Part shown: in pieces, positions 1 to 32,712 of the stretch
How the letters are laid out: every line of letters begins with the position of its first letter
How positions within the stretch are numbered: the first letter of the stretch is position 1
IMG/VR virus record: IMGVR_UViG_3300035698_016814
Location: 1 to 32,712 of that record
DNA length: 32,712 nt
Origin: a virus
Reading direction: 5' to 3' (one strand)
Notes under the pieces: generated by a model
What the model was told of the DNA's origin: nothing
The model's database searches: none
What the model saw: only the letters and a program-made list of their open reading frames with translations
Position numbers and translations under genes: made by a program

Positions 1-267
1 ACTGAGGTCAAGCCATCCTCCTACCTGTTTAGGTAAAACCAAGCCTTTCCCTGCGGTCAAGCTACTGAGGACAAGTACACCTCCCACCTCTTTAGGCAAG
101 ACTAAACCCTTTGCCGAGGTCAAGCCATTGAGGTCAAGCCAACCTCCCACCTTTTTAGGTAAAACCAAACCTTTTGCTGAGGTCAAGCTCCTGAGGTCAA
201 GTACACCTCCCACCTCTTTAGGCAAGACTAAACCCTTTGCCGAGGTCAAGCTCCTGAGGTCAAGCCA
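1..267 (-). repeat. 63-nt tandem repeats encoding 21-aa LRR-like units
   Basis: The repeat part of the LRR-like gene is also repetitive at DNA level with a 63-nt period. The 54 nt at 72-125 recur identically at 198-251, two periods away. Neighbouring units differ by a few bases. There are no unique spacers, so this is not a CRISPR array. The near-identity suggests recent expansion by slippage or recombination. Confidence 0.8.
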
Positions 268-1501: not shown

Positions 1502-1617
1502 CTCCACCCCCTTGTTTTCTGTCCGACCCCATCTTCCCAATTCATCTTGTCTTCTTCTGACCACTCGCTTAAATCTAACGGATAGGTGTAATTGTCCTCG
1601 TCATAAAAGTTAGGCAT
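1498..1617 (-). CDS. Small hypothetical acidic protein (39 aa)
   Basis: An ATG at 1617 follows a good ribosome binding site (AGGGGAGG, nine bases upstream) and opens a 39-codon frame starting MPNFYDEDNYTYPLDLSEWS. It ends in a TGA that overlaps the ATG of the hexapeptide-repeat gene (ATGA). Strong initiation signal, tight packing and end overlap support a real gene. It is acidic and rich in aromatic residues; no domain is recognised. Confidence 0.55.
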   Translation of the reverse strand: MPNFYDEDNYTYPLDLSEWSEEDKMNWEDGVGQKTRGWR

Positions 1618-6844: not shown

Positions 6845-8353
6845 ATGAGAATGGTTGAAGATAGTAAAAAGCTCATTGAGACAATGCAGTTGTTTGATAA
6901 GAACACGGGTGAGTATATACCTTTTAAGCTCTGGCAGAGACAAAGTGAACTGCTTGAGTTAATACATAGCGAGAAGAAGATAATACTCTTAAAGAAGCGT
7001 CAGGTTGCAGGCTCACAGCTTACAGGGGCAGACAGCCTGGCACAATGTATGCTCTTAGATAACTTTCTCGTATTGGTTCTTTCTAAAACAGGTGATGATG
7101 CAAAGGAATACTTACGCAGGGTATCGGGTATGTATTACGCCTTGCCTAAAAGTGTCCGCCTTGCAAGCCCTCTTATCGCAGAAGAACACCCGATGGAGAA
7201 GATGGAGTTTAAGAACGGTTCTCGTATACTATCTCTTTCAGCCAGAAAGGGCGCAGGTTATACGGCTGATAGGGTGATTATAGATGAGGCGGCTAAAATC
7301 AATACAAAGACCTCTCATATTACATTAGACGAAGTGTTAAAGAATGTTGAACCGGCTCTTGAAAAAGCGGGGGGGCAGCTTATATTGGTCTCTACTGCCG
7401 AAGGATATGGACAGTTTCAGCAATTATACGCTAAGGGTAAGACGGGAGAGACATCTTGGCGCTCTTTCTTCTTCTCTTGTTGGGACGACCCCACCTTTAT
7501 TAAAGAGAAGAGAGACCAGTTGGTTATTGACCACGGTGAAGACCACGTCAATGAAAACTATCCCAGAACCGATATAGAGGCGTTTTTAGTATCAGGGAAT
7601 TGCAGGTTTAATATAACTTGCCTCAAGTCTATGCAGGAAATCTCTATGAAAGAGGGCGAGAGGTGTTATTTAAGCAAGGTTAAGAAGTCAATTATCTGCC
7701 AGAGAGACCCTAAAGGCATTGTTAGAATATTTAAACACCCTCAAAGGGGAGAGATTTTTACATCGGGGTTTGATATTGCAGAAGGGCTTGAAACGGGAGA
7801 TTATTCTACCGGACAGATATTAAATGCTAAGACATTAGAACAGGTGGCTGAATTACGTTGTCACTACGAACCTAACGTCTTTGCGGAAGAAATATCAAGG
7901 TTATGCACTTATTACCATAGCTGTATGGCAGGAATAGAACGCAATAATCACGGCATAGCGGTCTTGCAGGAGTTAAAGAAGATATATTTTAACCTCTATT
8001 ATATGGAGAGTTTTGCCGAGAATACACAGGTTAGAAAGAGAAAGCTCGGCTGGATTACAAGCTCAAAGACCAAACCTTTAATGGTGGCAGAGGGCGATAA
8101 GATGATTAGAGAGGCGGAGGCATTGGTTCATTCTCCCGATTTAATCTCCGAACTAATGACATTTATCAGGTTTGCAGATGGCACAACGGGAGCTCAAGAC
8201 GGCTCTCACGATGATTTAGTGATAGCATGGTTAATAGCTTTACAGGTGCGTAAGTATGTCCACGCCGAAGAACCTACCAGAGAAGAGATGCATAAAGAGT
8301 TAAAAGCCGATAGGGAATTTGAGAAACAGATTGAAGGTGTAAGGGGGTATTGA
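6845..8353 (+). CDS. terL: Terminase large subunit (packaging ATPase/nuclease)
   Basis: The 502-aa protein has the full two-domain layout. In the ATPase domain, residues 31-59 contain an adenine/Walker A region (WQRQ, then KKRQVAGSQLT), residues 144-150 the Walker B strand VIIDEAA with catalytic Glu, and 179-186 the coupling motif LILVSTAEG. The RNase H-like nuclease domain has GFDIAEG (first metal-binding Asp at 310) and a final HDD at about 455-457 in GSHDDLVIAW. It translocates DNA into the procapsid through the portal and cuts concatemers. No intein is present here, unlike in the portal gene. Its stop overlaps the portal ATG by one base (TGATG). Confidence 0.95.
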   Translation: MRMVEDSKKLIETMQLFDKNTGEYIPFKLWQRQSELLELIHSEKKIILLKKRQVAGSQLTGADSLAQCMLLDNFLVLVLSKTGDDAKEYLRRVSGMYYALPKSVRLASPLIAEEHPMEKMEFKNGSRILSLSARKGAGYTADRVIIDEAAKINTKTSHITLDEVLKNVEPALEKAGGQLILVSTAEGYGQFQQLYAKGKTGETSWRSFFFSCWDDPTFIKEKRDQLVIDHGEDHVNENYPRTDIEAFLVSGNCRFNITCLKSMQEISMKEGERCYLSKVKKSIICQRDPKGIVRIFKHPQRGEIFTSGFDIAEGLETGDYSTGQILNAKTLEQVAELRCHYEPNVFAEEISRLCTYYHSCMAGIERNNHGIAVLQELKKIYFNLYYMESFAENTQVRKRKLGWITSSKTKPLMVAEGDKMIREAEALVHSPDLISELMTFIRFADGTTGAQDGSHDDLVIAWLIALQVRKYVHAEEPTREEMHKELKADREFEKQIEGVRGY

Positions 8354-11334
8354 TGGCTGAATTACTTAATCAGGAAGAACACGCTTTTAAAGAAGAGGAT
8401 TTCACAGCTTTTATTTGTCAAACCATTAAAGAGGCGATAAGTGAGCGCAAGGCATTTGACGCTTTAGTTGATACGTGGTGGAATGACTGGCGCGATATGA
8501 AGAATGAAAAGACTTTCCCTTTTAAAGGGTGTTATTCACCAGATACAGAAGCTTTAACCGATAAGGGCTGGGTTGGAATTGCTGATATTAAATTAACAGA
8601 TAAAGTTTATTCTCGTGCTTTAAATGGGCAAGCGGAGTATATGCCTGTTACTGACACCGTAAAAAACTATTATAAAGAAATGATAGAATTTACAAGCAGA
8701 CCCGCCAATTTATTGGTATCACCAGACCACAATGTGTATCTTGATGATGTTGGTGTGGATAAGATAAAATTTACTAAAGCTAATAAGTTATTAAAAATTA
8801 ACGGAAAGCATTTAAGAATTCCACTAACCTCAACTTGGCAAGGTGAGAAAATTGATAAAATATATGGATTTGATACTCACGATTGGATGAGTTTTCTTGG
8901 TTGGTATATTTCAGAAGGATATTCGAGAATTACTCCAAAGGGAAGGAAAGAAGGAAAGCGTATAGTTAAAAACGAAAGACAGACTTATATTGGTATCAGT
9001 CAATCCCAAAAAACAAATCCTGAAAAATGCAAACAACTTGAGAATTTATTTAATAGGATGAATTTAGAATATAAATATTATACGCAAGAATATCTCGTGA
9101 GAACAAAAGGTTTTCCTAAAGAAGCAATAAAAGAATTGAGAGAACTGGGAAAATGTTCTGATAAGTTTATTCCTCAAAAATATCTTAATTTAGATAAAAA
9201 GTATTTGGTTTGCTTGTTGAATAGTTTAATAGATGGCGATGGTTGTATTTCCCATGGCGGAACAACTTATTATACTACGTCAAAACGATTAGCGGACAAT
9301 ATTCAGGAGTTAGTTCAAAAAGTAGGATTAAGAGCTGTTATTAGGAAGCGCGATAGAAGGGGCAAGGGTGGAACAATCAGAGGGAAGCCCTGCATAACTA
9401 AAAAAATAAGTTATGTGTTGGGAATATTATCTACACGAAATGCAAGGGTTGGAAGATTAAAAAGAAAAATCGTAAAATATAATAACTATGCTTATTGTGT
9501 AACTACTCCATATCATACTTTATATGTCCGCAGGAATGGAATTGCTTGTTGGTGTGGAAATTGCAGTAATTTCTCTGTGCCTATCTCGTCTACTAAAGCC
9601 GATGCTGTTATCCCCCGCATAAGTGAGAGTATATTCGGCATTAACCCGCCTATAGAAGTTAAGGCTATGAATAAAACCGCGGCTCAACACAGAGATACAA
9701 TTAAAGCATTTCTTAACTGGGATTTAGATACCCACCCTGAAATAGCCAAAGAGATATGGTTCTTTATTCAAAACGCTGTTTGGAGTGGCACGGGATTTAC
9801 AAAGAGCTTTATGAATATAGAACGAGAGATGGAACAGAAAGATATTGTGGCTTACATTGTCAATGGAGAGATAGCCAGAGACCCGAATACAGGCAAGAGG
9901 ATAGACGTTACACAGCATAATACAGACTTATTTACACAAGCAAGAGTGCCTTTTGAGATAAGAGAGGACATTGTAGAGAAAAAGCCAGCATGGAAGAAGT
10001 ATAACCCTGATATTCTAACCCTTGATATTAAAGATGTATTATTCCCCTCAAGCTCGGAGTCTATTGAAGACGCTTGGGATAATTCCTTAATTGCGGTGCG
10101 TGTCTGGAGGACAAAGGATTACTTACGCAGACAGCTCAAGGACGATAAGAAAGAGCTTTATAAACGCCTTGATAAGATAAAGATAAAGGGATTAGATGAA
10201 GAACAGGCTAAAGAGGGAGACGATAAGCGGAAAGAACAATTAGCTAAATTTGCCTCAAAGACAAAGAAAGTAGAATGTTTTGAAGTCTATGTTAATTATG
10301 ATGTTGACGGTGATGGGCTTGAAGAAAAGGTGGTTGCTATCGTTAATGTTCAGCAGGATTTATTGTTTGGCTGGGAGAAATATCCATACAAGCACGGCAG
10401 ATGCCCGATTATTCCAGGATATATTAAACCTTTACATAATCACCCTTTCGGTGTAGGCATACCTGAAATGCTTTATGATACAAAGGGAGAGATAGACGCT
10501 GTTCATAATCAGCGTGTAGACAGAGGCTCATACTACAACGAACCTATCTTAATGCACACTAAAGCAAGCGGTTATAATCCGGCTATTCATAAAAGAGGTG
10601 TAGGCAGGCATTGGAGGTTAAAAGATATAAGCGAAGGTTCTATTAGATTTACCCAGCCTCCTAAATATGAAGGCGAGTCAAAAGAAGAAGAGATTATCTT
10701 ACAAAACTATGCCCAGCAGAGAAGCAATGTCAGTGATTACAACGTCGGCTCAGAGTCGGAGACGAATAAAAAGCCTACTGCGACAGGCATTATGGCATTG
10801 ATTAAAGAGAGCAATATCGGCTTTAGGAACTTTACCAAGTGGATTTCACTAAGCGTGGCGGAGATATTCAGACAGAGATTTGCATTATATCAGCAGTATT
10901 GGGGTCAGGCTTCCGATGAGGAAGTAAAGTCTTGGGTTGAGCAAATTCTTGATATACCGGATAACCCTTTAAGTGTAGATAACTTTGACGCTATAAATCA
11001 GCAGTTTAACATTGTGATGACGGCTACAAAAGATGATATTAACGTTGAGCTTACAAAGGCACAGCTTATCTACGATGTCTCTATGAACCACCCTCTTTTT
11101 CAGCAAGTGCCGACAAAGACAAGAGACGCTATTATAGAGCTGTTTAGAAAGGCTGGTATACAAAACCCCGAGAGCCTTGTGCCGACAGTTGAGGAGATAA
11201 AGAATTGGCAGGCAGAGGTGCAGGCGGAAGCCTTACGTATGGTTGAGCAGGAGAAGGCTCAGGCTAATGTAGAAGAAGCGGAGAAAAAGGGATTTGATAC
11301 TGAAATGTTAAGACAGGAGGCAAGCAAAGAATGA
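8353..11334 (+). CDS. Portal protein interrupted by an intein
   Basis: The frame encodes 993 aa from the ATG at 8353. After removal of a 344-aa intein (residues 60-403) the extein is about 649 aa, a normal portal length. The extein junction reads FPFKG followed by CSNFSVPISSTKADAVIPRI, the familiar conserved N-terminal stretch of portal proteins (FPW-x-G-x-SN-x-x-VP...). Later parts match the portal family, including the segment around NQRVDRGSYYNEP and a helical C-terminus with a Glu/Ala-rich tail. The portal forms the dodecameric ring at one capsid vertex for DNA entry and exit. It sits between the terminase and scaffold genes. Correct splicing is needed for function because the insertion is in a conserved core region. 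Confidence 0.9.
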   Translation: MAELLNQEEHAFKEEDFTAFICQTIKEAISERKAFDALVDTWWNDWRDMKNEKTFPFKGCYSPDTEALTDKGWVGIADIKLTDKVYSRALNGQAEYMPVTDTVKNYYKEMIEFTSRPANLLVSPDHNVYLDDVGVDKIKFTKANKLLKINGKHLRIPLTSTWQGEKIDKIYGFDTHDWMSFLGWYISEGYSRITPKGRKEGKRIVKNERQTYIGISQSQKTNPEKCKQLENLFNRMNLEYKYYTQEYLVRTKGFPKEAIKELRELGKCSDKFIPQKYLNLDKKYLVCLLNSLIDGDGCISHGGTTYYTTSKRLADNIQELVQKVGLRAVIRKRDRRGKGGTIRGKPCITKKISYVLGILSTRNARVGRLKRKIVKYNNYAYCVTTPYHTLYVRRNGIACWCGNCSNFSVPISSTKADAVIPRISESIFGINPPIEVKAMNKTAAQHRDTIKAFLNWDLDTHPEIAKEIWFFIQNAVWSGTGFTKSFMNIEREMEQKDIVAYIVNGEIARDPNTGKRIDVTQHNTDLFTQARVPFEIREDIVEKKPAWKKYNPDILTLDIKDVLFPSSSESIEDAWDNSLIAVRVWRTKDYLRRQLKDDKKELYKRLDKIKIKGLDEEQAKEGDDKRKEQLAKFASKTKKVECFEVYVNYDVDGDGLEEKVVAIVNVQQDLLFGWEKYPYKHGRCPIIPGYIKPLHNHPFGVGIPEMLYDTKGEIDAVHNQRVDRGSYYNEPILMHTKASGYNPAIHKRGVGRHWRLKDISEGSIRFTQPPKYEGESKEEEIILQNYAQQRSNVSDYNVGSESETNKKPTATGIMALIKESNIGFRNFTKWISLSVAEIFRQRFALYQQYWGQASDEEVKSWVEQILDIPDNPLSVDNFDAINQQFNIVMTATKDDINVELTKAQLIYDVSMNHPLFQQVPTKTRDAIIELFRKAGIQNPESLVPTVEEIKNWQAEVQAEALRMVEQEKAQANVEEAEKKGFDTEMLRQEASKE
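8530..9561 (+). mobile_element. Intein with LAGLIDADG homing endonuclease in portal
   Basis: The intein is 344 codons in frame. It starts with Cys (CYSPDTEALTDKGWVGI, block A) and has a block B histidine in SPDHNVY (intein residue 67). It carries two LAGLIDADG motifs, FLGWYISEG (122-130) and LNSLIDGDG (230-238), with acidic residues at E129 and D237. Near the end is block F (VTTPYHTLYV) and block G ending WCGN, followed by extein Cys. The terminal Asn and the +1 Cys are intact. The penultimate residue is Gly, not the usual His. All splicing and nuclease motifs look preserved, so it is probably active. Confidence 0.92.
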
Positions 11335-12843: not shown

Positions 12844-14118
12844 ATGGCTACTTATTTAAATGCAATGGAAAAAGCTGATGTAGTTAATCTTATACCAGAA
12901 CTATGGGCTAAAAAAATCAGGCAAGATGCCGAATATAAAGCTTTCTGGGATAGATTTGAAGGTGCTGAAGGTTCAAGAAAACCTCTGATTAAAAGAAATG
13001 ATTTTATGAAAGAGGCTGGAGACACCGTTCATATCAATGTCCAGAGTAGGCTTAGAAATGCTGGCGTTACTGGCGAAACTACCTTAAAGGGAAGTGAAGG
13101 TAAACTAACCTTTGGGCAGTTTGATGTGACCGTTGACTGGATAAGAAATGCTGTCAGTTTTAATAAGAAAGCAAAGAAAGAGTCGCTACTTGATTTAATT
13201 ATAGCTTCAAACGGAGCTCTTTCAGATTGGTTGGCACAGGAAAAAGACTCTGATACGTTTAAAGAGGTTCTTTCTACGGCCTCGCCTGATACATTGTTTG
13301 CTGGCGATGCAATAGGAAGGACAACTTTGGATGCGGGTTGCGGATTCGGCACAACTGAAATAGATAGGATGAGACTTGCTCTTATTCGTAAAAGAGCACT
13401 TCCTATTAGTATTATGCGTGATGGGAAAAATCAAATTCCTATTTACGGTATAGCTATTTCAGAGATAGACGAATACAATCTTAAAGCAGATGCGGTTTGG
13501 GTAAAGCGTAATTGCGAAGCCCTCGTTAGAGGAGACAGTAATCCTCTAATAAGTGGTGCTTTAGGTATGTTTAATGGTTGCCTTATATATCCTCATTATG
13601 GAATGGCAGGAAACCAAGGCACACCGTTGCGTCCGGAAGCAAGTGTGTATGGAGTTCACACGGCTATTGTAACGACAATTACCGTAGGTGATAGCACAGA
13701 TGGTGTTGATTACACGAGATACTTTGATGATGATGGCACGATTGCTATAATCGACTCATCTGGACAGAAAGAGTTTGTGACCTATACCGGCAAGGAGCTT
13801 TATTCCTTTACGGGTTGCACAAGGGGAGCAATTTACGGTTCTGACGGTGCGGCAGACGGTGCGATTAATTACACAGGCACGGAGATAATCACACAGGTGA
13901 ACCACCTTACCAAGCAGATAGGTTTTGGTGCTGAAATATGTGCCAGAAGCTGGGCATTGTATCCTACTCCGACTACGGAAGTTGAGGATTATGGATTCGA
14001 GCTTGGTATCGGTGTAGAAGCAGTTTGGGGAAACAAGGCGATTGAAGACTCTGCTGGCGCAAATCCTAACTACTTGATTATGGAGTCTTATGCCGCTAAC
14101 CCAAATAGGGGGTATTAA
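12844..14118 (+). CDS. Major capsid protein, N4-gp56 family type
   Basis: The 424-aa product starts MATYLNAMEKADVVNLIPEL and continues with ELWAKKIRQDAEY and GDTVHINVQSRLR, a signature that I recognise as the N4-gp56 (DUF4043-like) major capsid family, which has the HK97 fold. Residues about 267-349 look like an inserted beta-domain (TVGDST, KEFVTYTG, FTGCTRGAIYG) rather than part of the core fold. It would form the capsid shell. A ribosome binding site AAGGAG precedes the start. It directly follows the scaffold-like gene and precedes a signal-peptide-bearing gene. Confidence 0.85.
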   Translation: MATYLNAMEKADVVNLIPELWAKKIRQDAEYKAFWDRFEGAEGSRKPLIKRNDFMKEAGDTVHINVQSRLRNAGVTGETTLKGSEGKLTFGQFDVTVDWIRNAVSFNKKAKKESLLDLIIASNGALSDWLAQEKDSDTFKEVLSTASPDTLFAGDAIGRTTLDAGCGFGTTEIDRMRLALIRKRALPISIMRDGKNQIPIYGIAISEIDEYNLKADAVWVKRNCEALVRGDSNPLISGALGMFNGCLIYPHYGMAGNQGTPLRPEASVYGVHTAIVTTITVGDSTDGVDYTRYFDDDGTIAIIDSSGQKEFVTYTGKELYSFTGCTRGAIYGSDGAADGAINYTGTEIITQVNHLTKQIGFGAEICARSWALYPTPTTEVEDYGFELGIGVEAVWGNKAIEDSAGANPNYLIMESYAANPNRGY

Positions 14119-15785: not shown

Positions 15786-16686
15786 ATTTTATCAAGATTT
15801 GAAAATGCCGGATTTAAACAGAATCCCTTTGTCTCTTTTGATGGAGTTCTTGAACGAAGCAGAGCGTATTGTAAATAAGCGTTCTAAAACTATCAGGTCT
15901 ACTTCTACCACCGATTCTATTGCTAACCAGAGGCTTTATGATATGCCTTCTGATATATTAGACTGGCAGATAATAAATGTCTATTATTCTTTAACCAACT
16001 CTACCGAAAGAAGAAGGCTTGTGCCTGCTTCCATATCTGAGCTTGATGCTCTTAGAAGGGGATGGAAAGAGATAACAGGTTCTCCGAAGTTTTGGTATAT
16101 TGATAAAGAGCAAGGCAAGTGGGGAGTCTATCCCTATGAAAAGACCTTGCGGACAGGAACAGACTGTATTGAAATAATCTACCGAAGCAAGCACACTAAA
16201 ATGACCAACTACTATACTGCGGGAACAATAGCCGTAATCAATGCCTCAACCGCCATTACAGGCACGACTACCGCCTTTATCGGCAACATTGTAGCCAATG
16301 ACGAGCTTGGCGTGGGTAAACTATTAGACAGGTCAACCGATTTCCCTACCACATTTTATAGTGTATCTGCCACTCCTACCGCAGATGATACATTGGTTTT
16401 ATCTTCCGCTTACGCAGGCGCAAACAATGCAACCGCCAGTTATATCATTTCAAGCCCCTCCTCAATAACTAATGAAGAATTAAATATGTGCAGTATCTTA
16501 TGGGCTATGTCTTTGGCTAAAAAGAAAGATGGCGATTATGACGGTGCGGCAAGCTTGCAAAATGAGGCATTAGCAAGAGTGGAAGATGAGATGGCTCAAC
16601 TTGAAGATGACGCTTTAATGAATGAGGCAATAACACTTGAAGGAACCATGAGATACCCAGGTGGATTTGAAAGCGATTATGATTAA
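15760..16686 (+). CDS. Head-tail adaptor protein
   Basis: The 308-aa product starts with a helical domain (MNFAQMANRFYQDLKMPDLN) and contains LYDMPSDILDWQIINVYY, the pattern of phage head-tail adaptors of the P22 gp4/T7 gp11 sort, which form a ring below the portal. Residues about 155-231 are an inserted beta-domain (TAITGTTTAFIG ... YAGANNATASYII) that also occurs in the tail hub gene downstream. The C-terminus returns to helices (MCSILWAMSLAKKKDGD). The start lies inside the HNH gene behind AAGGGGATAG. Its end overlaps the NHL gene by eight bases. Confidence 0.7.
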   Translation: MNFAQMANRFYQDLKMPDLNRIPLSLLMEFLNEAERIVNKRSKTIRSTSTTDSIANQRLYDMPSDILDWQIINVYYSLTNSTERRRLVPASISELDALRRGWKEITGSPKFWYIDKEQGKWGVYPYEKTLRTGTDCIEIIYRSKHTKMTNYYTAGTIAVINASTAITGTTTAFIGNIVANDELGVGKLLDRSTDFPTTFYSVSATPTADDTLVLSSAYAGANNATASYIISSPSSITNEELNMCSILWAMSLAKKKDGDYDGAASLQNEALARVEDEMAQLEDDALMNEAITLEGTMRYPGGFESDYD

Positions 16687-17764
16687 AGGCGGACAAAAGG
16701 TATTCAGCGGACTTTATGTTAAAGATAATCCTTTGGTTATCCCTGACAAAAATACGCCGGATTGTGAAAACATTTTAACTAATAACCCTATCGGAGCCTT
16801 AGTAAATATAGAGGGTATGGAAAAGCAAAGAACAACCGCTTATAATAATGACATTGTAGGCATACACCAGTTAAATGAAAGAGGCAGGTTCGGAGATGGT
16901 AGTATTTATTCAAACGATGGAGATATTGATATTCCGTTAAATAATCCCGGAGATGTTGTAATTGCTGAAAGTTTTGTTTGGATTTGTAATAATTTTATTC
17001 TCATTCCTCCACCTAGAAAAAGGCGTATTGAGGTTGTTAATTTAACAGCGTCTTCTTATTGGAACTTTGGCAGTTATGGAAGTGGAGACGGTCAATTTGA
17101 ATGGACAAGCAGTTTAGAGGTTTATGGTTCTGAAATATATGTTACTGATGGGTCATTAAATAGAGTTCAGGTATTTAATTTAGAAGGCACTTATCAAAGA
17201 AAATGGGGCAGTAGTGGAAGTGGAGATGGAGAGTTTAATTCGTGTAATGGAATATCCATATACAATGACGAAGTATATGTAGTTGATAGTGGCAATAGCA
17301 GAATACAAGTATTTGATTTAAATGGTAATTATGTTAGAAAATGGGGTTCTCTCGGTGGAGGAAACGGAGCATTTAGAATCCCTCTTGGATTATTTGTATA
17401 CAATAACGAAGTATATGTAGCAGACCAGAGTAATATCAGAATACAAGTATTTGATTTAAATGGTAATTTTGATAGAAAGTGGGGTTCTTTCGGTGCTGGA
17501 GATGGTGATTTTGGTCTTTTTATCAGAGATGTTTATGTATATAATGACGAAGTATATGTAACTGATAGTGGCAATAGCAGAATACAAGTATTTGATACTG
17601 CTGGTAATTATGTTAGAAAATGGGGTAGTGGTGGTGCTGGAGATGGCGAACTTAACGGTGCAGAAGGAATTTTTGTATATAACGGCGAAGTATATGTAGC
17701 CGACGCTGGTAATAATAGAATACAAGTTTTTGATTTAAATGGAGTTTATTACAGGCAATTTTAA
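16679..17764 (+). CDS. Hub N-terminal domain fused to NHL-repeat propeller
   Basis: The 361-aa product from the ATG at 16679 has two parts. Residues about 5-65 (PDCENILTNNPIGALVNIEG, EKQ, IHQL) are a copy of the domain encoded by the next gene, 17765-18001. Residues about 120-361 are five NHL repeats of about 46 aa, each with KWGSxGxGDGxF, xxVYVxDxGNxRIQVFD and an NGNY linker, forming a beta-propeller blade each. NHL propellers bind proteins or glycans in many settings (family knowledge). In this place it is probably a tail or receptor-related protein. The start codon could also be the GTG at 16661. No signal peptide is present. Confidence 0.75.
   Translation: MIKGGQKVFSGLYVKDNPLVIPDKNTPDCENILTNNPIGALVNIEGMEKQRTTAYNNDIVGIHQLNERGRFGDGSIYSNDGDIDIPLNNPGDVVIAESFVWICNNFILIPPPRKRRIEVVNLTASSYWNFGSYGSGDGQFEWTSSLEVYGSEIYVTDGSLNRVQVFNLEGTYQRKWGSSGSGDGEFNSCNGISIYNDEVYVVDSGNSRIQVFDLNGNYVRKWGSLGGGNGAFRIPLGLFVYNNEVYVADQSNIRIQVFDLNGNFDRKWGSFGAGDGDFGLFIRDVYVYNDEVYVTDSGNSRIQVFDTAGNYVRKWGSGGAGDGELNGAEGIFVYNGEVYVADAGNNRIQVFDLNGVYYRQF
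17050..17755 (+). repeat. About 138-nt tandem repeats of NHL blades
   Basis: The five NHL blades are also similar at DNA level; for example aatagcagaatacaagtatt recurs near 17291 and 17573 and in variant form in the other blades. The repeats are adjacent and in frame. This leaves the blade number open to change by recombination. Confidence 0.7.
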
Positions 17765-18001
17765 ATGAATAAATTAAAGTATAGACAAAAAGAATTTAAA
17801 GGTTTAATGGTAAAGATTGCAACGGAGGATTTACCGCCTGAATATTCTCCCGACTGCGAGAACGTGGTGGTCTCTGTGGGTGGCGAGGTAACGAATATAA
17901 GCGGTATGGAAAAGCAAGCAACGAGCGGATATACAAATGACGTGGTTGCAATTCATCAGTTGGATAGCGACGATGCCACGCTTGCAGAGGTTACAGCTTA
18001 A
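17765..18001 (+). CDS. Split-off N-terminal domain of tail hub protein
   Basis: The 78-aa product contains SPDCENVVVSVGGEVTNISG followed by MEKQATSGYTNDVVAIHQLD. This is the N-terminal domain normally fused to podovirus-like tail hub proteins, to my recollection. It is homologous to the N-terminus of the NHL fusion gene just upstream. The frame ends in TAA 17 bases before the TTG start of the large hub gene, which is in another frame. The hub frame has its own TAA just upstream of its start, so the two are not joined by simple frameshifting. The ribosome binding site is weak and the start abuts the previous stop. Confidence 0.65.
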   Translation: MNKLKYRQKEFKGLMVKIATEDLPPEYSPDCENVVVSVGGEVTNISGMEKQATSGYTNDVVAIHQLDSDDATLAEVTA

Positions 18002-18018: not shown

Positions 18019-20022
18019 TTGTCAGTATTAGTTTTCACGGATGCAGACCCAAATTTATTACCGTCTTTAGTTAATTTTAAAGGCTTCTGTTTCTTTTTAA
18101 ACGGACAGGATGTGCCGAAGTATGCTGATGTATTAGGCAATGAGTATGAGTGGATGCACATTGACCCCACCACCGCAATAATAACCGACGAGACTCTAGG
18201 CGGAACAATGAATGGTATCTATAAGTATTTTTATACAGAAGTTTATAGAGACTCTGGAAATAGTATGCACACCTGCCACGAAACTAACCCCTCCGCTATT
18301 TATACCACAGGTGCATTGGTAAATAAAAAGGTTGTTTTAACCTTGCCTGCGACGGGAGACAACGCTTGGATGACACACCTCAAGGTGTATTCTACCGACG
18401 CTGCCGGAAGTATATATTATTATATAGGCAATGTAGTTAAAGGCACAACTTCTTTTGATGACGATAATATCACAAGAGACGCTACTGTTCCCTTTGGTAA
18501 ACTTGATACGGATGCAGACGGCGTTGTGAGCCAAACATATCTTAATTATCCAGTTAAAAATCATCAATATCATATAGCCACTAAATCAAGAATAATAGCT
18601 TGCGGTGTCAGGAATAAAACAGACGGCACGGTAGATGTAATTAACGGTAATGCTACCGTAGATGGCACGACTACGGACTGGACAAGAGCTATCGTGGGCG
18701 ACCAATTCAAGGTTGACGGAGAGAATAGGACTTATACCATATCCGCCTTTGTGAGTTCCGTAGAGATTACTTTAGATGAAACATATAAAGGTGTGACTAA
18801 TACCGGTTTAGATTACAGCATACAAGGTGTTAGTGATATTTTTAGATGGACGGCTAAAAACCCAAGCACGGCTTATCCTATGTGGTGGGCGTTTCCCGTG
18901 AGTTTTTATAAGAGAATTATATCAAAAGACGATTCCTCTATAAGCGGTATAAATAAAATAGGTAATAATCCTATTATATTTAAAGAGCAGAGCCATTATC
19001 TTTTAACTGAAAACGGTGATGATTATATTGTTCAGGAATCAAGAACCCACGTTGGAACTTGCAGTCATCATTCTATTGTTGAAACAGGCGAGATTGGAAC
19101 GCTTATATTTATGACGAAAGAAGGCTTGATTTATGAGTCAACGGGTTTAGGTGCTGTTGATTTAGATATAGATTTAAGCAGAACTATTGACGGTATAAAT
19201 AAGACAAGGCTTAAATATGTTCAGGGTAGGTGGATACAACATAAGAAGTGGTATATGCTTTTGTATTCAAGCGAAGGCTCAACCGAACACGACAGGATAT
19301 TAGTTTATGACTATGATTTAAAACAATGGGTTATCTGGGCTATATATGGAAATTGTCTTGGGTATATTGAGTCGTCAGAGGGAGCGCAGACTGTTTATAA
19401 GCCTTGGCTTGGCACAAGAGGGGCTTTTGTCTATAAAATGCTGACAGGATATAATCTCGGGGCTGGCACAGGTGGAGACGTTGAAGGAACTATTACAGGG
19501 GCAGGTGCGACAACTTTAACCGATACAGGGGCTACATTTTACACAACTGGAGACGGTTTAAAAGATATCTATGTTTCCGTCTTTGACAGTAACGGCGACT
19601 TTGTAGAAGAAAAACAGATAAGCTCTAACACGGCTAATATATTAACGGTTGCGGCTTGGGTTACAACTCCTACTGTGGGTTATACATACGAGGTAGGTTC
19701 TATAAGGTGGTATTATAAATCAAAGGTTTTTGATTTTGAACAGGACGAGTCAAAGAGCATAGACAATGTTCTGATAAATTTTAAGAAGGTTGCTACTGCA
19801 CGTAACGTTGATGTTAAATTTTATTTTAGCAACGACGCTGATATGATAGGAGACACGGCAGACCAGACCATTGCCTTTGATTTGACAACTGAGTATTACG
19901 AGCCACAGGGGCTTTTTGACAACCGCTTTAGGTTCTGCCAGTATGAGATTTCAGGACACGGTTCGGCAGACCCAGTAGTCGTTAATAATCTTGTTTTAGA
20001 GTTACAACAGCACTTGAGGTAA
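18019..20022 (+). CDS. Tail hub/tubular protein (beta-propeller type), TTG start
   Basis: The 667-aa product starts at TTG 18019, seven bases after AGGAG; an in-frame TAA directly upstream rules out a longer form. It begins MSVLVFTDADPNLLPSLVNF followed by KGFCFFLNGQDVPKYADVLG, as in phage tail hub or nozzle proteins (P22 gp10/T7 gp12-like; tentative). It then carries an inserted beta-domain (about 203-268, VINGNATVDGTTTDWTRAIV) and a second one (about 487-568). The part with QGRWIQHKKWYMLLYSSEG and ILVYDYDLKQWVIW is typical of propeller strands in these hubs. It probably forms the lower tail tube or nozzle. The N-terminal domain is encoded separately just upstream. Confidence 0.7.
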   Translation: MSVLVFTDADPNLLPSLVNFKGFCFFLNGQDVPKYADVLGNEYEWMHIDPTTAIITDETLGGTMNGIYKYFYTEVYRDSGNSMHTCHETNPSAIYTTGALVNKKVVLTLPATGDNAWMTHLKVYSTDAAGSIYYYIGNVVKGTTSFDDDNITRDATVPFGKLDTDADGVVSQTYLNYPVKNHQYHIATKSRIIACGVRNKTDGTVDVINGNATVDGTTTDWTRAIVGDQFKVDGENRTYTISAFVSSVEITLDETYKGVTNTGLDYSIQGVSDIFRWTAKNPSTAYPMWWAFPVSFYKRIISKDDSSISGINKIGNNPIIFKEQSHYLLTENGDDYIVQESRTHVGTCSHHSIVETGEIGTLIFMTKEGLIYESTGLGAVDLDIDLSRTIDGINKTRLKYVQGRWIQHKKWYMLLYSSEGSTEHDRILVYDYDLKQWVIWAIYGNCLGYIESSEGAQTVYKPWLGTRGAFVYKMLTGYNLGAGTGGDVEGTITGAGATTLTDTGATFYTTGDGLKDIYVSVFDSNGDFVEEKQISSNTANILTVAAWVTTPTVGYTYEVGSIRWYYKSKVFDFEQDESKSIDNVLINFKKVATARNVDVKFYFSNDADMIGDTADQTIAFDLTTEYYEPQGLFDNRFRFCQYEISGHGSADPVVVNNLVLELQQHLR

Positions 20023-26869: not shown

Positions 26870-27645
26870 GCTATATATTAAGTTTTATATTTATGTTCTG
26901 GCTTGTTTATGAGTTGACTAAATGCGAGCTAGCTAAATACAAGCCAACTAAATGCAAGCTAAATAAATGTGAGTTGACTAAATGCAGGGTGTCTGCCTTG
27001 TTTAGCGGTGTGATTTATTCCCTGTCGGCGTATCATCTGGCTCATTATATGCACCCGACTTTATATAATATACAATGGATGCCGTTATATATAATATGCC
27101 TTCTTTGCCTTGCAAAAGAGGGAAGTGTGGCTTGGTTAATAATCTCGTCTTTAATGTTTGCAGTAGTCTTATATGCAGACGCTTACTATGGCTATTATGC
27201 AATGATAATCTTTGCATTGATGGCTATGTTTAAGAGATTTAATACATTTAAGATAGTATTGCCTTTTGTGGCTTTAACTACGCTGTTATCTCTGCCGTTT
27301 GTCTTATGGTCAAGGTGCTTATGGGGCGAGAGAATGACGAAGGATATGATTTATTATACAGCTCACCTGTCTGATTATATTTATCCTTACGGGCAGAATG
27401 CGATAGAGTATGTTTTATATATATCACCAGTGGTGTTACTGCTTGCGTTGTTTGGGCTGAGAAGGGCGGACAAGGTATTTGTGGCATTGTTTTTTATAGC
27501 TTTAGTTTTTTCTTTTTATCCGCCAATAATGCCTGTATTCAGGTCGTCTGCGAGGTTCGGCTTTCTGGTGATGTTATCAGCAAGCGTATTGGCAGGGTAT
27601 GGTGTTTTGCAATTAAATAGGAGGTATAGTTATGGCGAGTTATAA
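26866..27645 (+). CDS. Truncated polytopic membrane protein (GT-C-like), host-derived
   Basis: The 259-aa frame from TTG 26866 has several membrane helices and contains SGVIYSLSAYHLAHYMHPTL, followed by the motif-like QWMP and DAYYGYYAMI. These are characteristic of bacterial membrane proteins of the GT-C glycosyltransferase or YfhO-like kind (family knowledge). Those are usually at least 500 aa with an N-terminal catalytic Asp loop, which is missing here. Between helix 1 and helix 2 is an inserted stretch of five pentads (ELTKC type). The start is weak and without a good ribosome binding site, and the C-terminus overlaps the next gene's start. It looks like a fragment of a bacterial gene caught in the phage genome and may be non-functional. 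Confidence 0.5.
   Translation: MSYILSFIFMFWLVYELTKCELAKYKPTKCKLNKCELTKCRVSALFSGVIYSLSAYHLAHYMHPTLYNIQWMPLYIICLLCLAKEGSVAWLIISSLMFAVVLYADAYYGYYAMIIFALMAMFKRFNTFKIVLPFVALTTLLSLPFVLWSRCLWGERMTKDMIYYTAHLSDYIYPYGQNAIEYVLYISPVVLLLALFGLRRADKVFVALFFIALVFSFYPPIMPVFRSSARFGFLVMLSASVLAGYGVLQLNRRYSYGEL
26911..26985 (+). repeat. Five 15-nt tandem repeats (ELTKC pentads)
   Basis: Five units with consensus gagttgactaaatgc sit end to end, first and fifth identical, in frame with the membrane protein (ELTKC, ELAKY, KPTKC, KLNKC, ELTKC). They lie between two predicted membrane helices. The cysteine every fifth residue is striking. It looks like an insertion into the host-like gene. Confidence 0.8.
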
Positions 27646-28459
27646 TAGGTGGAGAACTAAAAACAATAGGGGTTCTCTTGGTTCAATGTATGACCAATCA
27701 GGCAGTAGAATTACAAATGCAGACATAATCTCAAGAGCAAGGCACGGTTCGCCTTATGGTGCAAATCAAACCCAAACCACTCAATCCCAACCTGATTATG
27801 CAGGACTACAGGCGGAAGCTCAAAGGTCGGTAGAAGAGGCAAGGTCGTTGCAGGAGGCTTCTAAAACTTCCGCATTGGGATATTATCAGCCTATTCAGGC
27901 GGCACTTGGTCAGATGTCGCCAGAGCTTATATCTTCCGAACAGCAGTCAAGGATGTTGGCTACCAGAAGGGCAGAGCTTGGGGCTTCAGGGCAGAATTTA
28001 GCGAGCTTATACTCTGACCCATATTCAGGCGTGCAGACAGCTCAAAGGGCTCAAATAGGTATGGGCGTTGCAGGCAGGCAGGCAAATCTACCAATAGAAT
28101 TAGAATTAGAAGTTGCGGGGGCTAATAGAGAGGCGGCTCTTGGGTTATATGGCGCACAGGCAGGCGTGGCAGGCGGTATGGCTGGAGTTCAAACTGCCTA
28201 TCAATATGACCCTGGATTAGAATATATACAGCAATTAGGTTATAATCAGGGCTATCAGCAGTCGCAATCTCTTGGCGGAGGAATGGCAGGTGCAGGCACA
28301 GGGGAAAAGCATACTTTGGTTCAACCAAGCGCCAGACAAAGAACAAGAAGCTTAGGAAGCACATCAACAAGTAGTTCGGGAGTTAGAACTACAAGAAGTA
28401 GCTCTTTGGGCTATGCAAAGCAGAGAGCATCCTCATTGAGAAAGTCGGTATTTGGTTAA
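27632..28459 (+). CDS. Putative internal virion protein (Gln/Ala/Ser-rich, 275 aa)
   Basis: The start follows AGGAGGTATAGTT and lies inside the end of the membrane-protein frame. The product is low-complexity: Gln-, Ala- and Ser-rich helix (AGLQAEAQRSVEEARSLQEA), Gly/Ala repeats, and a basic Ser/Arg C-terminus (TSSSGVRTTRSSSLGYAKQR). No signal peptide or membrane helix is present. Together with the following two genes it resembles the block of internal or ejection proteins that podovirus-like phages carry after their tail genes (context inference). No family is recognised. Confidence 0.55.
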   Translation: MASYNRWRTKNNRGSLGSMYDQSGSRITNADIISRARHGSPYGANQTQTTQSQPDYAGLQAEAQRSVEEARSLQEASKTSALGYYQPIQAALGQMSPELISSEQQSRMLATRRAELGASGQNLASLYSDPYSGVQTAQRAQIGMGVAGRQANLPIELELEVAGANREAALGLYGAQAGVAGGMAGVQTAYQYDPGLEYIQQLGYNQGYQQSQSLGGGMAGAGTGEKHTLVQPSARQRTRSLGSTSTSSSGVRTTRSSSLGYAKQRASSLRKSVFG

Positions 28460-28486: not shown

Positions 28487-29527
28487 ATGTCACCAGTTAT
28501 ATCTACGTTAGGGGCTAATATACCCTACCAATCCGGCAAGGGTCTTGGGCAGATAAGCGCAGAGAAAGAGTCGTATACGAGGGGTGTTGAAAATGCTCGC
28601 CTTCAAATGCAACAGCAACAGATTGAGAACGCCAGAATTGAACGAGAGCTTATTAGACAAACTCAGGAAGAAAGTAAGATTAAAGAACAGCTTAGGTATG
28701 AAGAAAATAAGGTTACAGAACAGCTTAGATATGAAAAAGAACAAGCGGACACAGAAAGAACATATCAAACAGAGCAGATGTGGAAAACAAGAAAATATGA
28801 TGAAAATATAATAAAAGAAAATCTACAGAGAGTTAAAGAAGAAGAAGAATTAAAGAAAGAGAATATCTTAACCAATTTGGCTACGGCAAGCGGTATGCCT
28901 TCCGGCGTATTCCCAGTCAAAACTCTATACAAAGCACCCAAGACAGACGTTGAGGCAATGCAGGGTATTTTTGATGCTCAGAATATAACAGATGTAGATA
29001 TAAAAGATGAGATTTTACGCAAGAAGTCAGCAGGAGAGGCATTAACGGTAGGAGAACAGGCAATATATGACGAAATCATTAGAAAAAAACCTACTCTTGC
29101 ACCAGAGGAATTTGGCAAGAGAGAGATTGCTAAAAGAGAGGCAAGTAGAGAGCAAGATGTAGTTGATTTATTTGAAGGTTCTGAAAAACATATCGGATAT
29201 TTAGAAACTAATAAATTCTATGAGGAAGCTGTAATAAATAAAGAAGGAAAAATGGAAACTCCAAGCAAAAAAGCAGTTGAATACTCTTTAAGCCAGTATA
29301 ACGAGATGAGAAGGAGCCAAGAATTACCAGAGCTGGAGCTTATAGAAAAGAAAGAGCCTTTAAGGTGGGGTAGGGAGAGGAGTTATTGGGAGTTGCAGGA
29401 AAAGAAATCTGCCTTAAAGACAAAAGGTGGTTCTTCCTTGCCAGCAGGAATAACCGAAGAAGATATAAAATATACTATGGATAAATATAACTTATCAAGA
29501 GAGGAAGTTTTAAAAAGGATAAGATAA
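28487..29527 (+). CDS. Putative internal virion protein with long coiled coil (346 aa)
   Basis: The start follows CGGAGGTTAAATT. After a short N-terminus (MSPVISTLGANIPYQSGKGL) residues about 25-130 form a very charged Gln/Glu/Arg coiled coil. The rest is helical with mixed charge and ends in DKYNLSREEVLKRIR. Coiled-coil proteins of this kind near the end of late operons are often ejected with DNA or line the tail (inference). No enzyme motif is visible. Confidence 0.55.
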   Translation: MSPVISTLGANIPYQSGKGLGQISAEKESYTRGVENARLQMQQQQIENARIERELIRQTQEESKIKEQLRYEENKVTEQLRYEKEQADTERTYQTEQMWKTRKYDENIIKENLQRVKEEEELKKENILTNLATASGMPSGVFPVKTLYKAPKTDVEAMQGIFDAQNITDVDIKDEILRKKSAGEALTVGEQAIYDEIIRKKPTLAPEEFGKREIAKREASREQDVVDLFEGSEKHIGYLETNKFYEEAVINKEGKMETPSKKAVEYSLSQYNEMRRSQELPELELIEKKEPLRWGRERSYWELQEKKSALKTKGGSSLPAGITEEDIKYTMDKYNLSREEVLKRIR

Positions 29528-32500
29528 ATGCCAAGAGATTTATTGAATATGAAAGTTGAGGATAGGCAACCAAGAGATTTGCTTGCTACAAGAGAGCAAC
29601 CAAGAGATTTATTGGCAACTGAATTTAAACCTACTCCCAGTATAATGCCAGATGTAGATACCACTCCTATGCGAGGGGTTGATAGAGGCGTTGAAGACAT
29701 TGGTATTCAAAAAATTAAAACTCCTTCTATGCTAAAAGACTTTATAACGACATCGCCAACTCAAGGTGTAAAAGACGTGGAGAGATTTGAAGAGGATATT
29801 AAAGGGTTTATACCACGAGAAGCGGCGCAAGAAGATGTTGCAAGAATTTCAAGCATATATAAAAAATACACACAGCCCGCTTTAAACTGGACGTTCAGAA
29901 CTTGGCTACCATCTAAATTAGCAGGATATAATCTGTCAGACGAAGAAAAACTTGAAACCATTGAGACAACAGAAGGTTCTTGGGATAAAAATTTAGACGA
30001 AGCATTAACTCTTAGCCATAAGCAAAATAAAGGCTTTCAGGAAGTATTACATTTAGACAGAAAAAATAGGGAAATGAACAGGAGGGCATTAGAATTTGGA
30101 ATGACAGGATTTGATGCCTATGAAACCCCAACTCAGGCATTTAAAAGAGGTTTTGTATCGGGAACTGGCGGAGAGATATTAGAGAGAGGAACAGATGTAA
30201 AGACTTGGCTTACTTGGTATGTTTTACAGGAAGCCGTGCCTCCCTTACTAAAAAAAGCGGTTGATAAACTTCCTAAAAGCTGGCAGAAGTTTTTAACTAA
30301 AGATATTTTTAACAGAGCAAATAAAGAATTAAACAATGCCTATAAAACAATAGGTGGCTCTAAGGGTGAATCTCTTGAAATCCTATCATCTAAATATAAA
30401 AGGTTAGCTTCCAAAGCACACCCAGATAAACCAACTGGAAGTAGAGAGGCATTTGAAAGGGTTAAAAATGCGTGGGATTTAATAAAGAAATCAAGGTTAG
30501 TGTCTGTGCCTGATTTTGTAAAAGATTTTGAGACAAAAGCTAAATTGTTATACGCTGGCTATCCTATAAAATATAAAGAAATTATAAGAGAGATTATGAA
30601 GATAGACCCTACCAAAACCGCCGCGTCTTTAAGTGCTTTGCCTATTACTAAATTACAGGGTATGTTATCAGAGTTAAAAGTCCAACCCACTCCCATAGCA
30701 AGAGTTAAAGACATAGCGAAGGTAGAGCCATCTCTTGCGGTAGAAGCTAAGAAATATAAGAGTGCAGAGGAGTTTATTGAGAGCAAAGACTTACAAAAGG
30801 CACAGGCACTTACAGTAGCTAAAGAAAAACTCTTTATATCTGAAAAGGGTAAAATGAAACCCCAGTATAGAAGATTAGCTGAGGCGATGACAGGCAAAAA
30901 GTCTATTAGGGATATGACACAAGTTGAGGCTGATAATTTTATAAAAGCACTTCAGAAACTTCCTGAACCGACATATAAGTCTGGGAAATTAGTTCCACCT
31001 TCTATTCCAACAACCAAAGACATAGTCACAGAAGGTTTTTTTGAACACACATTTAAAAAGCCAACTCCTGCAAAACTGCTTACGTCTCAGTCAAGATATG
31101 CAGAATTATTAGGCGTGAAAGAACTTGCAAAGCCGTTTGAAGTGGGCAAGATGAACCTTGACCTTGAATATGGAAAAATATCGCACCAAATAGACATTGC
31201 CACCAGAAAACTCAAGCAATCTAATGTTAAGCCAGAACAGATGGCTCAACTTTTAAATACTAACGAAGAAGCACCTGCTGAATTAACAGGCAAAGAAAGA
31301 GATATATTTAATTATTTTAGGGAACTAACAAGAGAAATTATAAGTAGAGAAAATGCAGTAAGAAAGGCACTTAATTTAGAACCCATAAAGTATAGAAAAG
31401 CATACTTTAAGCACGTAGCAGATTTAATGTCTCAAGAAGTTGTTGAAGGCAAGCACCCCTTACCAGAAGGATTAAAATATTGGTCTGAACAGCTTGTAGG
31501 CAAAAAAGTCTTTAATCCTATGGAAATGAAAAGGAAACTTCAAGATGACCTTTTGGATTACTTTTCAAAAGATTTGTCTTATGTAATGAAGTCTATGGCT
31601 TGGACTGGATTAAAAGAAATATACTTAGCCCAACCAAAGCATTTCTTTAATAAAATTCTGGGAACATTATCTAAAGATAAATCCGTCTATTCAAACCTTA
31701 CCCCAAGAGAACAAAAAATATACGACGCACAGATGACAATGCCAGCCTCAACAAAGAAATGGCTTATTGATTATGTTAATATAGTCCTATCCGGCAGGCA
31801 GACTTCATTAGATGAAAGTGTTAATTTGTGGATAACAGATACCCCCATAAAAGACGTTGTTAATAAAATTTTAAAGCCATTCGGCAAGCACATGAGTCAA
31901 AGACCTGTAACAAATATGATTACAGGATTTAGCAGACTTCCTATTTATGGTGTTTTGGGTGGCATTAACCCCAGACAGTTATTAAGAAACAAAATGCAGA
32001 CTTTACAAAATATGGCTTTATATGGAGTTAAAAATACACTGCTTGGTTATATTCCAACCTCGTCTTATCCAACACTTAAAAAACTTAAAACAGATAGCTT
32101 ATTTAAAAAATCATATTCAGGATTTGAGGATATGCCTGCCAAATTAAGAAGCAAACTTGAGAGGGTTGGGCTTGCACCTTATCAATGGACAGCTTTAAGT
32201 AATGTATCTCAAGCTATGAATACATCGTATCATTGGACAGCTAATAAAATACAGAACCCAAAATTTAAAAAACATGGCTGGGCTGATTCAAAAAGAACAT
32301 ACAAAGAAGATAAGGATTTCTTCTACCCAAGCGAAGAAGAAAAATTACTAAAGGAAATGGAATACGGAGCGCACACAACGCAGTATGGATATATTGGAAT
32401 GAATATGCCGGAAGCATTTAGGTATAAATCATTGGCTGGGATAACAAGGTTACAGAGTTGGTGGATGAACCATTGGTTTGTTTTTCACAGGGAAGCGGCT

Positions 32501-32712
32501 ACAAGAGCATTCACGGGTCATGCCGGATATGACCCTAAATTAAAAATAACTCTTGGTGATAGAACAAACTATCTTAAATACCTCATTATAGGTGGTGTAA
32601 TTCTTAATACATTAGGTTATGGTAGAAGTTATTTAATAGGCACAGCACCTACAGGCTTACCTCCCACAGCTCAATTAGTATTAGGGGTATATACACTCTT
32701 AACAAATTTGGG
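29528..32712 (+). CDS. Giant late protein with J-domain, C-terminus beyond window edge
   Basis: An open frame of at least 1061 codons runs from ATG 29528 to the window edge without stop. The N-terminus repeats PRDLL three times within 30 residues. Residues about 268-325 read as a J-domain: a first helix (NKELNNAYKTIGG), a second helix (LSSKYKRLASKA), then H298-P299-D300 (AHPDKPTGSREAFERVKNAW). After this come helical segments rich in Lys and Glu, and near the visible end hydrophobic stretches (YLIIGGVILNTLGYG). Parts resemble the large polyvalent proteins of phages that are packaged in the virion (tentative). A J-domain stimulates DnaK-type chaperones, so this protein may recruit the host chaperone during assembly or after ejection (inference). 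Confidence 0.75.
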   Translation, partial: MPRDLLNMKVEDRQPRDLLATREQPRDLLATEFKPTPSIMPDVDTTPMRGVDRGVEDIGIQKIKTPSMLKDFITTSPTQGVKDVERFEEDIKGFIPREAAQEDVARISSIYKKYTQPALNWTFRTWLPSKLAGYNLSDEEKLETIETTEGSWDKNLDEALTLSHKQNKGFQEVLHLDRKNREMNRRALEFGMTGFDAYETPTQAFKRGFVSGTGGEILERGTDVKTWLTWYVLQEAVPPLLKKAVDKLPKSWQKFLTKDIFNRANKELNNAYKTIGGSKGESLEILSSKYKRLASKAHPDKPTGSREAFERVKNAWDLIKKSRLVSVPDFVKDFETKAKLLYAGYPIKYKEIIREIMKIDPTKTAASLSALPITKLQGMLSELKVQPTPIARVKDIAKVEPSLAVEAKKYKSAEEFIESKDLQKAQALTVAKEKLFISEKGKMKPQYRRLAEAMTGKKSIRDMTQVEADNFIKALQKLPEPTYKSGKLVPPSIPTTKDIVTEGFFEHTFKKPTPAKLLTSQSRYAELLGVKELAKPFEVGKMNLDLEYGKISHQIDIATRKLKQSNVKPEQMAQLLNTNEEAPAELTGKERDIFNYFRELTREIISRENAVRKALNLEPIKYRKAYFKHVADLMSQEVVEGKHPLPEGLKYWSEQLVGKKVFNPMEMKRKLQDDLLDYFSKDLSYVMKSMAWTGLKEIYLAQPKHFFNKILGTLSKDKSVYSNLTPREQKIYDAQMTMPASTKKWLIDYVNIVLSGRQTSLDESVNLWITDTPIKDVVNKILKPFGKHMSQRPVTNMITGFSRLPIYGVLGGINPRQLLRNKMQTLQNMALYGVKNTLLGYIPTSSYPTLKKLKTDSLFKKSYSGFEDMPAKLRSKLERVGLAPYQWTALSNVSQAMNTSYHWTANKIQNPKFKKHGWADSKRTYKEDKDFFYPSEEEKLLKEMEYGAHTTQYGYIGMNMPEAFRYKSLAGITRLQSWWMNHWFVFHREAATRAFTGHAGYDPKLKITLGDRTNYLKYLIIGGVILNTLGYGRSYLIGTAPTGLPPTAQLVLGVYTLLTNL

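What the first reader, a model, noticed from the sequence alone, without database searches (positions are those of the whole stretch)
29528..32712. J-domain (HPD intact) inside a giant phage late protein
Residues about 268-325 show the order of a DnaJ J-domain: helix 1, helix 2 ending KAHPD, then a helix with EAFERVKNAWDLI. The HPD triad is at 298-300. In a long protein of the ejection-protein position, this suggests that the phage carries its own co-chaperone activity, perhaps to recruit host DnaK for folding, membrane passage or virion maturation. I know of no well-studied example of this layout.
Basis: partly seen in the sequence, partly recalled or inferred. Interest (0 to 1): 0.7.

Follow-up and report, generated by a model that had tools for sequence, protein, structure and literature searches.

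The report
J-domain built into phage ejection-type protein
An uncultured short-tailed-type phage carries a genuine DnaJ-type J-domain, the module that switches on the bacterial Hsp70 chaperone DnaK, inside a very large protein probably carried in the virus particle; some related phages have it in the same place and others lack it, which suggests a swappable device for hijacking the host chaperone.

Summary
The open frame 29528-32710 (1061 aa, cut by the contig end) has a J-domain at residues 271-321 with HPD at 298-300. Pfam DnaJ matches at E 6e-6 for the whole protein (26.7 bits, cut-off 27.8) and 31.3 bits for the segment alone; PDB sequence matches are Sis1, Hsp40 and DnaJ.

The first search found one J-less relative, but a pattern scan and profile searches found nine homologues of this orphan protein in virus contigs and two bacterial MAGs. 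Two strong ones (L091, complete, 1393 aa; L100, 1484 aa, in an apparent prophage of a ~0.7-Mb bacterium that encodes DnaK) and one weaker, partial one (L092) keep an HPD-bearing J-domain in the N-terminal third. The other six lack it; one, L097, has a polyvalent-type ADP-ribosyltransferase in that part instead.

The gene ends a P22-like virion module, so an ejected protein is likely, though packaging is inferred. Best reading: the J-domain is an optional N-terminal effector that recruits host DnaK to the delivered (or assembling) protein. Phage J-proteins are known as separate genes (Rki of RB43); I found no report of one within a large virion-module protein.

The parts
29528..32712 (+). Large J-domain-bearing protein gene (1061+ aa, cut by contig end; complete homologue L091 has 1393 aa)
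   Evidence: ORF and translation; homologue 52% identical over residues 372-1060
30338..30490 (+). J-domain, residues 271-321
   Evidence: PF00226 match; PDB J-domain sequences; three-helix model
30419..30427 (+). HPD triad, residues 298-300, within KAHPDKPTG
   Evidence: Sequence; conserved in L091, L100 and L092
29531..29623 (+). N-terminal short repeated peptide (PRDLLN...QPRDLLATREQPRDLLATEF) before a variable linker
   Evidence: Self-match beats all 300 shuffles
30863..30961 (+). GemA-like motif (residues 446-478), start of the conserved core
   Evidence: PF06252 E 0.001, below its cut-off; the same weak match in L091, L097, L098, L099, L100 and L002
30818..32710 (+). Conserved core of the large protein (residues 431-1061+), 36-54% identical to the window in six homologues
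   Evidence: Alignment A5, tree and identities
28487..29527 (+). Helical-looking 346-aa protein just upstream; a gene of 267-609 aa precedes the large gene in every relative examined, mostly without detectable similarity
27632..28459 (+). 275-aa protein, candidate small ejection protein by position only
   Evidence: no family match
18019..20022 (+). P22 gp10-like (phage stabilization / tail) protein
   Evidence: tblastn to 'phage stabilization protein' of MW202497, E 6e-4; PHROG tail families; homologue in L100
15760..16686 (+). gp4/adaptor-like structural protein (phrog_399)
   Evidence: E 7.7e-11
12844..14118 (+). Major capsid protein (phrog_334)
   Evidence: E 7.5e-24
8350..11334 (+). Portal protein interrupted by an intein-like insertion
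   Evidence: phrog_1216 E 2.7e-14; insertion-type matches at residues about 60-355; homologue without the insertion in L018
6845..8353 (+). Terminase large subunit
   Evidence: phrog_2 E 7.5e-23

Best explanation
The gene encodes a large virion-module protein, most likely one packaged in the head and delivered with the DNA. A genuine J-domain sits in its variable N-terminal third. After delivery (or while the protein is made and packaged) the J-domain's HPD loop docks on host DnaK, triggers ATP hydrolysis and clamps DnaK onto the phage protein itself or something beside it. Being tethered to a long protein that must pass a narrow channel and refold, the most likely use is at entry: recruiting DnaK to the emerging protein to pull in and refold it, or to capture and divert DnaK early. 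Shown: a significant J-domain profile match, intact HPD, the same domain in the same region of homologous proteins in the same gene slot, its absence from others, and an ADP-ribosyltransferase domain in the corresponding N-terminal part of one homologue. Inferred: packaging, ejection, cytoplasmic exposure, DnaK binding and the stage of use.
For: J-domain. Homologue L091 (1393 aa): 52% identity over the core, PF00226 28.6 bits over cut-off at residues 232-272, HPD at 247. Homologue L100 (1484 aa): PF00226 48.8 bits, E 7.8e-13 at 296-345, HPD at 322; it lies in an apparent integrase-bearing prophage joined to murA/mreB-like genes of a ~0.7-Mb genome that encodes DnaK next to its own DnaJ. L092 N-terminal part: HPDKPTG in a degenerate J-domain, weak Pfam match (E 0.002 for the segment), followed by the same 'EARKYKSVEEF' block. 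Module use: L097 has ART-PolyVal (E 6.9e-7) N-terminal to the core, a family named for polyvalent proteins, which are thought to be injected (PMC5512222). Gene order: terminase, portal, capsid, adaptor, gp10-like, then smaller genes and the large one. Precedent that a phage J-domain engages DnaK: RB43 Rki (PMC3486835). T7 gp16 is a large helical protein that can refold from a partly unfolded state (PMC8954989).
Against: No evidence of packaging or ejection; the protein matches no known ejection-protein family. Six of nine homologues work without a J-domain. In T7 the N-terminal part of gp16 lies in the periplasm (PMC8954989), where DnaK is absent, so an N-terminal J-domain is useful only if this protein is oriented otherwise or its host lacks that geometry. 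The window's J-domain scores just below the Pfam cut-off for the whole protein, and that of L092 is degenerate.
Confidence: 0.5

Rival explanations
1. Assembly-phase co-chaperone: the J-domain recruits DnaK while the protein is made, to keep it foldable or soluble until it is packaged; it does nothing after infection.
For: It is a very long late-module protein; for jumbo-phage J-domain proteins, recruitment of host Hsp70 for folding and assembly is the published guess (PMC7824862).
Against: Homologues with the same core and size manage without it; one homologue has an enzyme domain of a host-modifying type in the corresponding part, which fits an effector better.
Confidence: 0.27
2. DnaK interference after delivery: the J-domain captures DnaK to change host physiology (heat-shock sigma factor stability, or DnaJ-dependent phage sensing), as a counter-host effector rather than a folding aid. 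This overlaps with the broad best explanation but excludes a role in entry.
For: RB43 Rki binds DnaK, is toxic through it and stabilises sigma32 (PMC3486835); DnaJ is needed for phage sensing by the NLR-like protein bNACHT25, as cited in PMC12619734; the domain's mosaic presence resembles an accessory effector.
Confidence: 0.2
3. Degenerate relic: a J-fold retained as a helical spacer, no longer active on DnaK.
For: The window's match is modest (26.7 bits) and L092 is poor (14.3 bits).
Against: HPD is intact in all four members that have the domain, and the window keeps YKR before it and F and W in helix III; L100 is a canonical J-domain (E 7.8e-13).
Confidence: 0.1
4. Chance or assembly artefact: a spurious match, or a host gene fused by misassembly.
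For: Initially few relatives; the gene is cut by the contig end.
Against: One continuous frame, with independent homologues of the same architecture from other samples.
Confidence: 0.01

Closest known systems
Rki, J-domain protein of phage RB43 (gene 057w; PMC3486835) and its T4-like relatives
   Same: Phage-encoded J-domain with intact HPD; Rki is shown to bind host DnaK
   Different: An early-expressed gene of its own or a short fusion, not part of a 1000+ aa virion-module protein; RB43-type relatives in Klebsiella and Enterobacter phages are only 25-32% identical in the J-domain
Ejection (internal virion) proteins of short-tailed phages: T7 gp16, P22 gp16
   Same: Large, predicted helical, last of the virion genes after smaller neighbours in a P22-like gene order
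   Different: No detectable sequence relation; no J-domain mentioned in the passages read of the review (PMC8954989); packaging not shown here
Polyvalent proteins of phages and plasmids (PMC5512222)
   Same: Long proteins in which domains of different activity are exchanged; a homologue (L097) carries the polyvalent-type ADP-ribosyltransferase
   Different: DnaJ is not mentioned in that survey
HMO-2011-type phage DNA polymerases with a partial DnaJ central domain (PMC6918029)
   Same: A DnaJ-derived piece inside a multidomain phage protein
   Different: That is the CXXCXGXG zinc region, not the J-domain, and it sits in a polymerase
DnaJ-domain co-chaperones of jumbo phages (PMC7824862)
   Same: Phage J-domains proposed to recruit host Hsp70
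   Different: Described as co-chaperones, with no fusion to a large virion protein in the passage read

Membership tests
J-domain (PF00226) | Significant profile match | tested here: met
   E 6e-6 whole protein, 31.3 bits for the segment against cut-off 27.8; L100 48.8 bits
J-domain (PF00226) | Invariant HPD between helices II and III | tested here: met
   HPD 298-300; also 247 in L091, 322 in L100, 230 in L092
J-domain (PF00226) | J-fold (antiparallel helices II and III with the HPD loop) | tested here: inconclusive
   Three helices in the right places, but pLDDT 64, best Foldseek E 0.17, VIA Z at most 6.2
J-domain (PF00226) | Stimulates the Hsp70/DnaK ATPase | not testable with these tools
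   Needs biochemistry
Full-length DnaJ (class A/B) | DnaJ zinc-finger and C-terminal substrate-binding domains | tested here: not met
   No PF00684 or PF01556 match at E <= 10 in P0001
Stand-alone phage J-protein (Rki type) | Small separate J-protein gene | tested here: not met
   The J-domain is internal to a 1061+ aa frame
Podovirus ejection protein (gp16-like) | Position at the end of the virion module after smaller internal-protein genes | tested here: met
   Gene order in window, L091, L092, L095, L100; one exception is L002, between portal and capsid-like genes
Podovirus ejection protein (gp16-like) | Sequence or fold relation to T7/P22 gp16 | tested here: inconclusive
   No PHROG or Pfam match to such a family; whole-protein model uninformative (pLDDT 37)
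Podovirus ejection protein (gp16-like) | Packaged in the virion and ejected | not testable with these tools
   No isolate or proteome
Polyvalent protein | Exchange of unrelated activity domains on a common long protein | tested here: met
   J-domain in window, L091, L100, L092; ART-PolyVal in L097 (E 6.9e-7, just under its curated cut-off); neither in L095, L101, L002
Polyvalent protein | Several catalytic domains in this very protein | tested here: not met
   P0001 shows only the J-domain and a weak GemA-like motif

The most novel reading that the evidence does not exclude
A family of large ejected phage proteins uses an exchangeable N-terminal J-domain to recruit host DnaK as a motor or ratchet that pulls the unfolded phage protein (and perhaps the DNA behind it) into the cell, the way J-proteins recruit Hsp70 at translocation pores in mitochondria and the ER.
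Probability: 0.15. Interest if true: 0.9.

Novelty: new variant of a known kind. Interest (0 to 1): 0.58.

Why it matters
How short-tailed phages drive the entry of their large internal proteins and the first DNA is still open in part, and a host Hsp70 motor would be a new answer. Even if the J-domain is instead an assembly aid or a DnaK trap, it would place a co-chaperone module among the exchangeable domains of likely injected phage proteins. One point mutation (HPD) makes the idea directly testable, and the prophage copy suggests a link to a small-genome host lineage in which phage biology is little known.

Tried and rejected
Close-relative scans with P0001 and with its N-terminal 221-aa stretch found one J-less relative or none; capsid and terminase scans found near-identical but short contigs that do not reach the gene. 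More distant relatives G005 and G008 have 1613- and 2513-aa proteins in the same slot, without a J-domain and without detectable sequence relation. Isolated phages: no relative of the core; only stand-alone J-proteins matched. Pseudomonas phage MIJ3 looked like a J-domain in a structural protein but is a separate dnaJ gene next to one. Searches of 247-384 genomes each from the phylum, order and class of the prophage's host found the J-bearing relative only in that genome, plus one distant partial core match in another. A tree of the core does not decide between one and two origins (or losses) of the J-domain. Transmembrane segments: no hydropathy window over the threshold in P0001. The full alignment does not align the J-domains because the N-terminal thirds are too variable. 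Whole-protein structure prediction failed. The host phylum of L100 could not be named; Patescibacteria-like is a guess from genome size.

Full report
What was checked. The frame at 29528-32710 runs open to the end of a 32.7-kb virus record and gives 1061 residues. The HPD is at residues 298-300. Pfam's DnaJ model matches residues 271-321 at E 6.1e-6 (26.7 bits, cut-off 27.8) in the whole protein and 31.3 bits in a 92-residue segment; the six-frame search of the record gives 30.9 bits and no other J-domain. By sequence the best solved relatives are Sis1, human Hsp40 and DnaJ J-domains. A single-sequence model shows three helices with HPD in the loop between the second and third, but confidence and fold-match scores are modest. 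The zinc-finger and substrate-binding domains of full DnaJ are absent.

Surroundings. Upstream lie terminase (6845), a portal gene with an intein-like insertion (8350), a scaffold-like gene (11905), capsid (12844), an adaptor-like gene (15760), a P22 gp10-like gene (18019), a fibre-like gene (20256), small genes, then a 275-aa and a 346-aa protein and the J-domain protein. This is the P22-type order in which ejection proteins come last. That the protein is packaged and ejected is inference from position, size and predicted helical content.

Relatives. The protein is an orphan among isolated phages. Scanning virus contigs for DNA encoding HPDKPTG and reading the frames uncovered L077/L091, whose complete 1393-aa protein is 52% identical over residues 372-1060 and carries an HPD-bearing J-domain at residues 232-272, 28.6 bits, over the Pfam cut-off. 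L043/L092 holds the first 363 residues of another member with HPDKPTG in a degenerate J-domain and the same following block, and shows the full order terminase, portal, capsid, adaptor, gp10-like position, fibre, 609-aa protein, J-protein. A profile of the core from the window and L091 then brought in L095, L097, L098 and L099 from virus contigs and L100 and L101 from bacterial MAG contigs. L100, 1484 aa, has a canonical J-domain (E 7.8e-13, residues 296-345). Its contig runs from phage structural genes through an amidase-like gene and an integrase-like gene to murA- and mreB-like and other bacterial genes, so it looks like a prophage; that ~0.7-Mb genome encodes DnaK with DnaJ beside it. L095, L097, L098, L099, L101 and L002 have no J-domain; L099 is cut at its 3' end and L098's frame is split, but neither record holds a J-domain anywhere. 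L097 has an ART-PolyVal domain (E 6.9e-7, just under its cut-off) N-terminal to the core, and L100 has a weak trace of the same domain after its J-domain (E 0.007 as a segment).

Reading. Core identities among window, L091, L100, L095, L098 and L101 are 47-84%, with L097 at 33-42% and L002 near 25%. On a fixed core, the N-terminal third is free to vary: J-domain, ADP-ribosyltransferase or neither. HPD is kept in all four J-bearing members. The tree does not resolve one gain from two. This mosaic pattern argues against a J-domain needed for the core's own folding in general and for an accessory, host-directed or host-dependent function.

Mechanism. J-domains act on Hsp70 through HPD (established knowledge), and RB43 Rki shows that a phage J-domain can engage host DnaK (PMC3486835). 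A J-domain tethered to a long protein would load DnaK onto that protein or its neighbourhood. If the protein is delivered like T7 gp16, which can refold from a partly unfolded state (PMC8954989), loading DnaK at the cytoplasmic exit would favour inward movement and refolding; alternatively it helps during assembly, or captures DnaK to alter the host. I favour action after delivery because an enzyme of a type found in likely injected proteins occupies the corresponding part of a homologue. In T7 the N-terminal part of gp16 is periplasmic, which is a point against unless topology or host envelope differ here.

Comparison. Known phage J-proteins are genes of their own or short fusions (Rki; jumbo-phage co-chaperones, PMC7824862; moraphage DnaJ, PMC12619734). 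A polyvalent-protein survey does not mention DnaJ (PMC5512222). A partial DnaJ central region within phage polymerases is a different piece of DnaJ (PMC6918029). So the domain is a known kind and its setting is new as far as the open-access library shows; subscription papers were not searched.

Limits. The window gene is incomplete; no homologue is from an isolate; no virion proteomics; single-sequence structure models; only four J-bearing members, one of them partial and weak.

Noticed in passing
window 8350-11334 (+), about residues 61-400: The portal gene carries an intein-like insertion with homing-endonuclease-like matches; the homologue in L018 lacks it.
   Followed up: partly
N-termini of the large proteins: window 29531-29623; L095:7997; L097:8507; L098:8115; L099:5406; L101:8363; L013:7745; L016:4972: Each begins with a short peptide repeated two or three times (for example QPRDLLATRE/QPRDLLATEF, SPNEYMGV/SPDEYMGI, GLFQD/GLFQD), different in sequence from phage to phage but alike in design, also in large proteins not detectably related to this one; significant against shuffles. 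A docking or packaging signal is a possible meaning.
   Followed up: partly
L097:8507-12049, residues 283-417; L100:8930-9346: Polyvalent-type ADP-ribosyltransferase domain in the N-terminal part of a J-less homologue, and a weak trace after the J-domain of L100.
   Followed up: partly
L116-L119 (contig of MAG bacterium CSMAG_1227): An apparent prophage of this lineage with an integrase-like gene, next to murA/mreB-like genes in a ~0.7-Mb bacterial genome; possibly a phage of a Patescibacteria-like host, not proven.
   Followed up: partly
L034:3710-5218 (-): J-domain in the middle of a 500-aa protein of a T4-like phage, with repeated GVAEG motifs and a glycine-rich hydrophobic stretch after it; perhaps another internal-head-type protein.
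   Followed up: no
L028, L029, L031, L052, L068: Virus proteins with a J-domain at the extreme C-terminus, ending about 30 residues after the HPD.
   Followed up: no
window 16661-17764 and 17765-18001 (+): Two neighbouring genes share an N-terminal segment; the first adds repeats that look like an NHL beta-propeller (GSGDGEF...VYVVDSGNSRIQVFD).
   Followed up: no
window 1-549 and 731-1564 (-): Genes built of short tandem repeats (LTSAKGLVLPKEVGG; AEIGDxAEIG hexapeptides); in a near-identical contig (L019) the first matches with extra repeat alignments and a longer frame.
   Followed up: no
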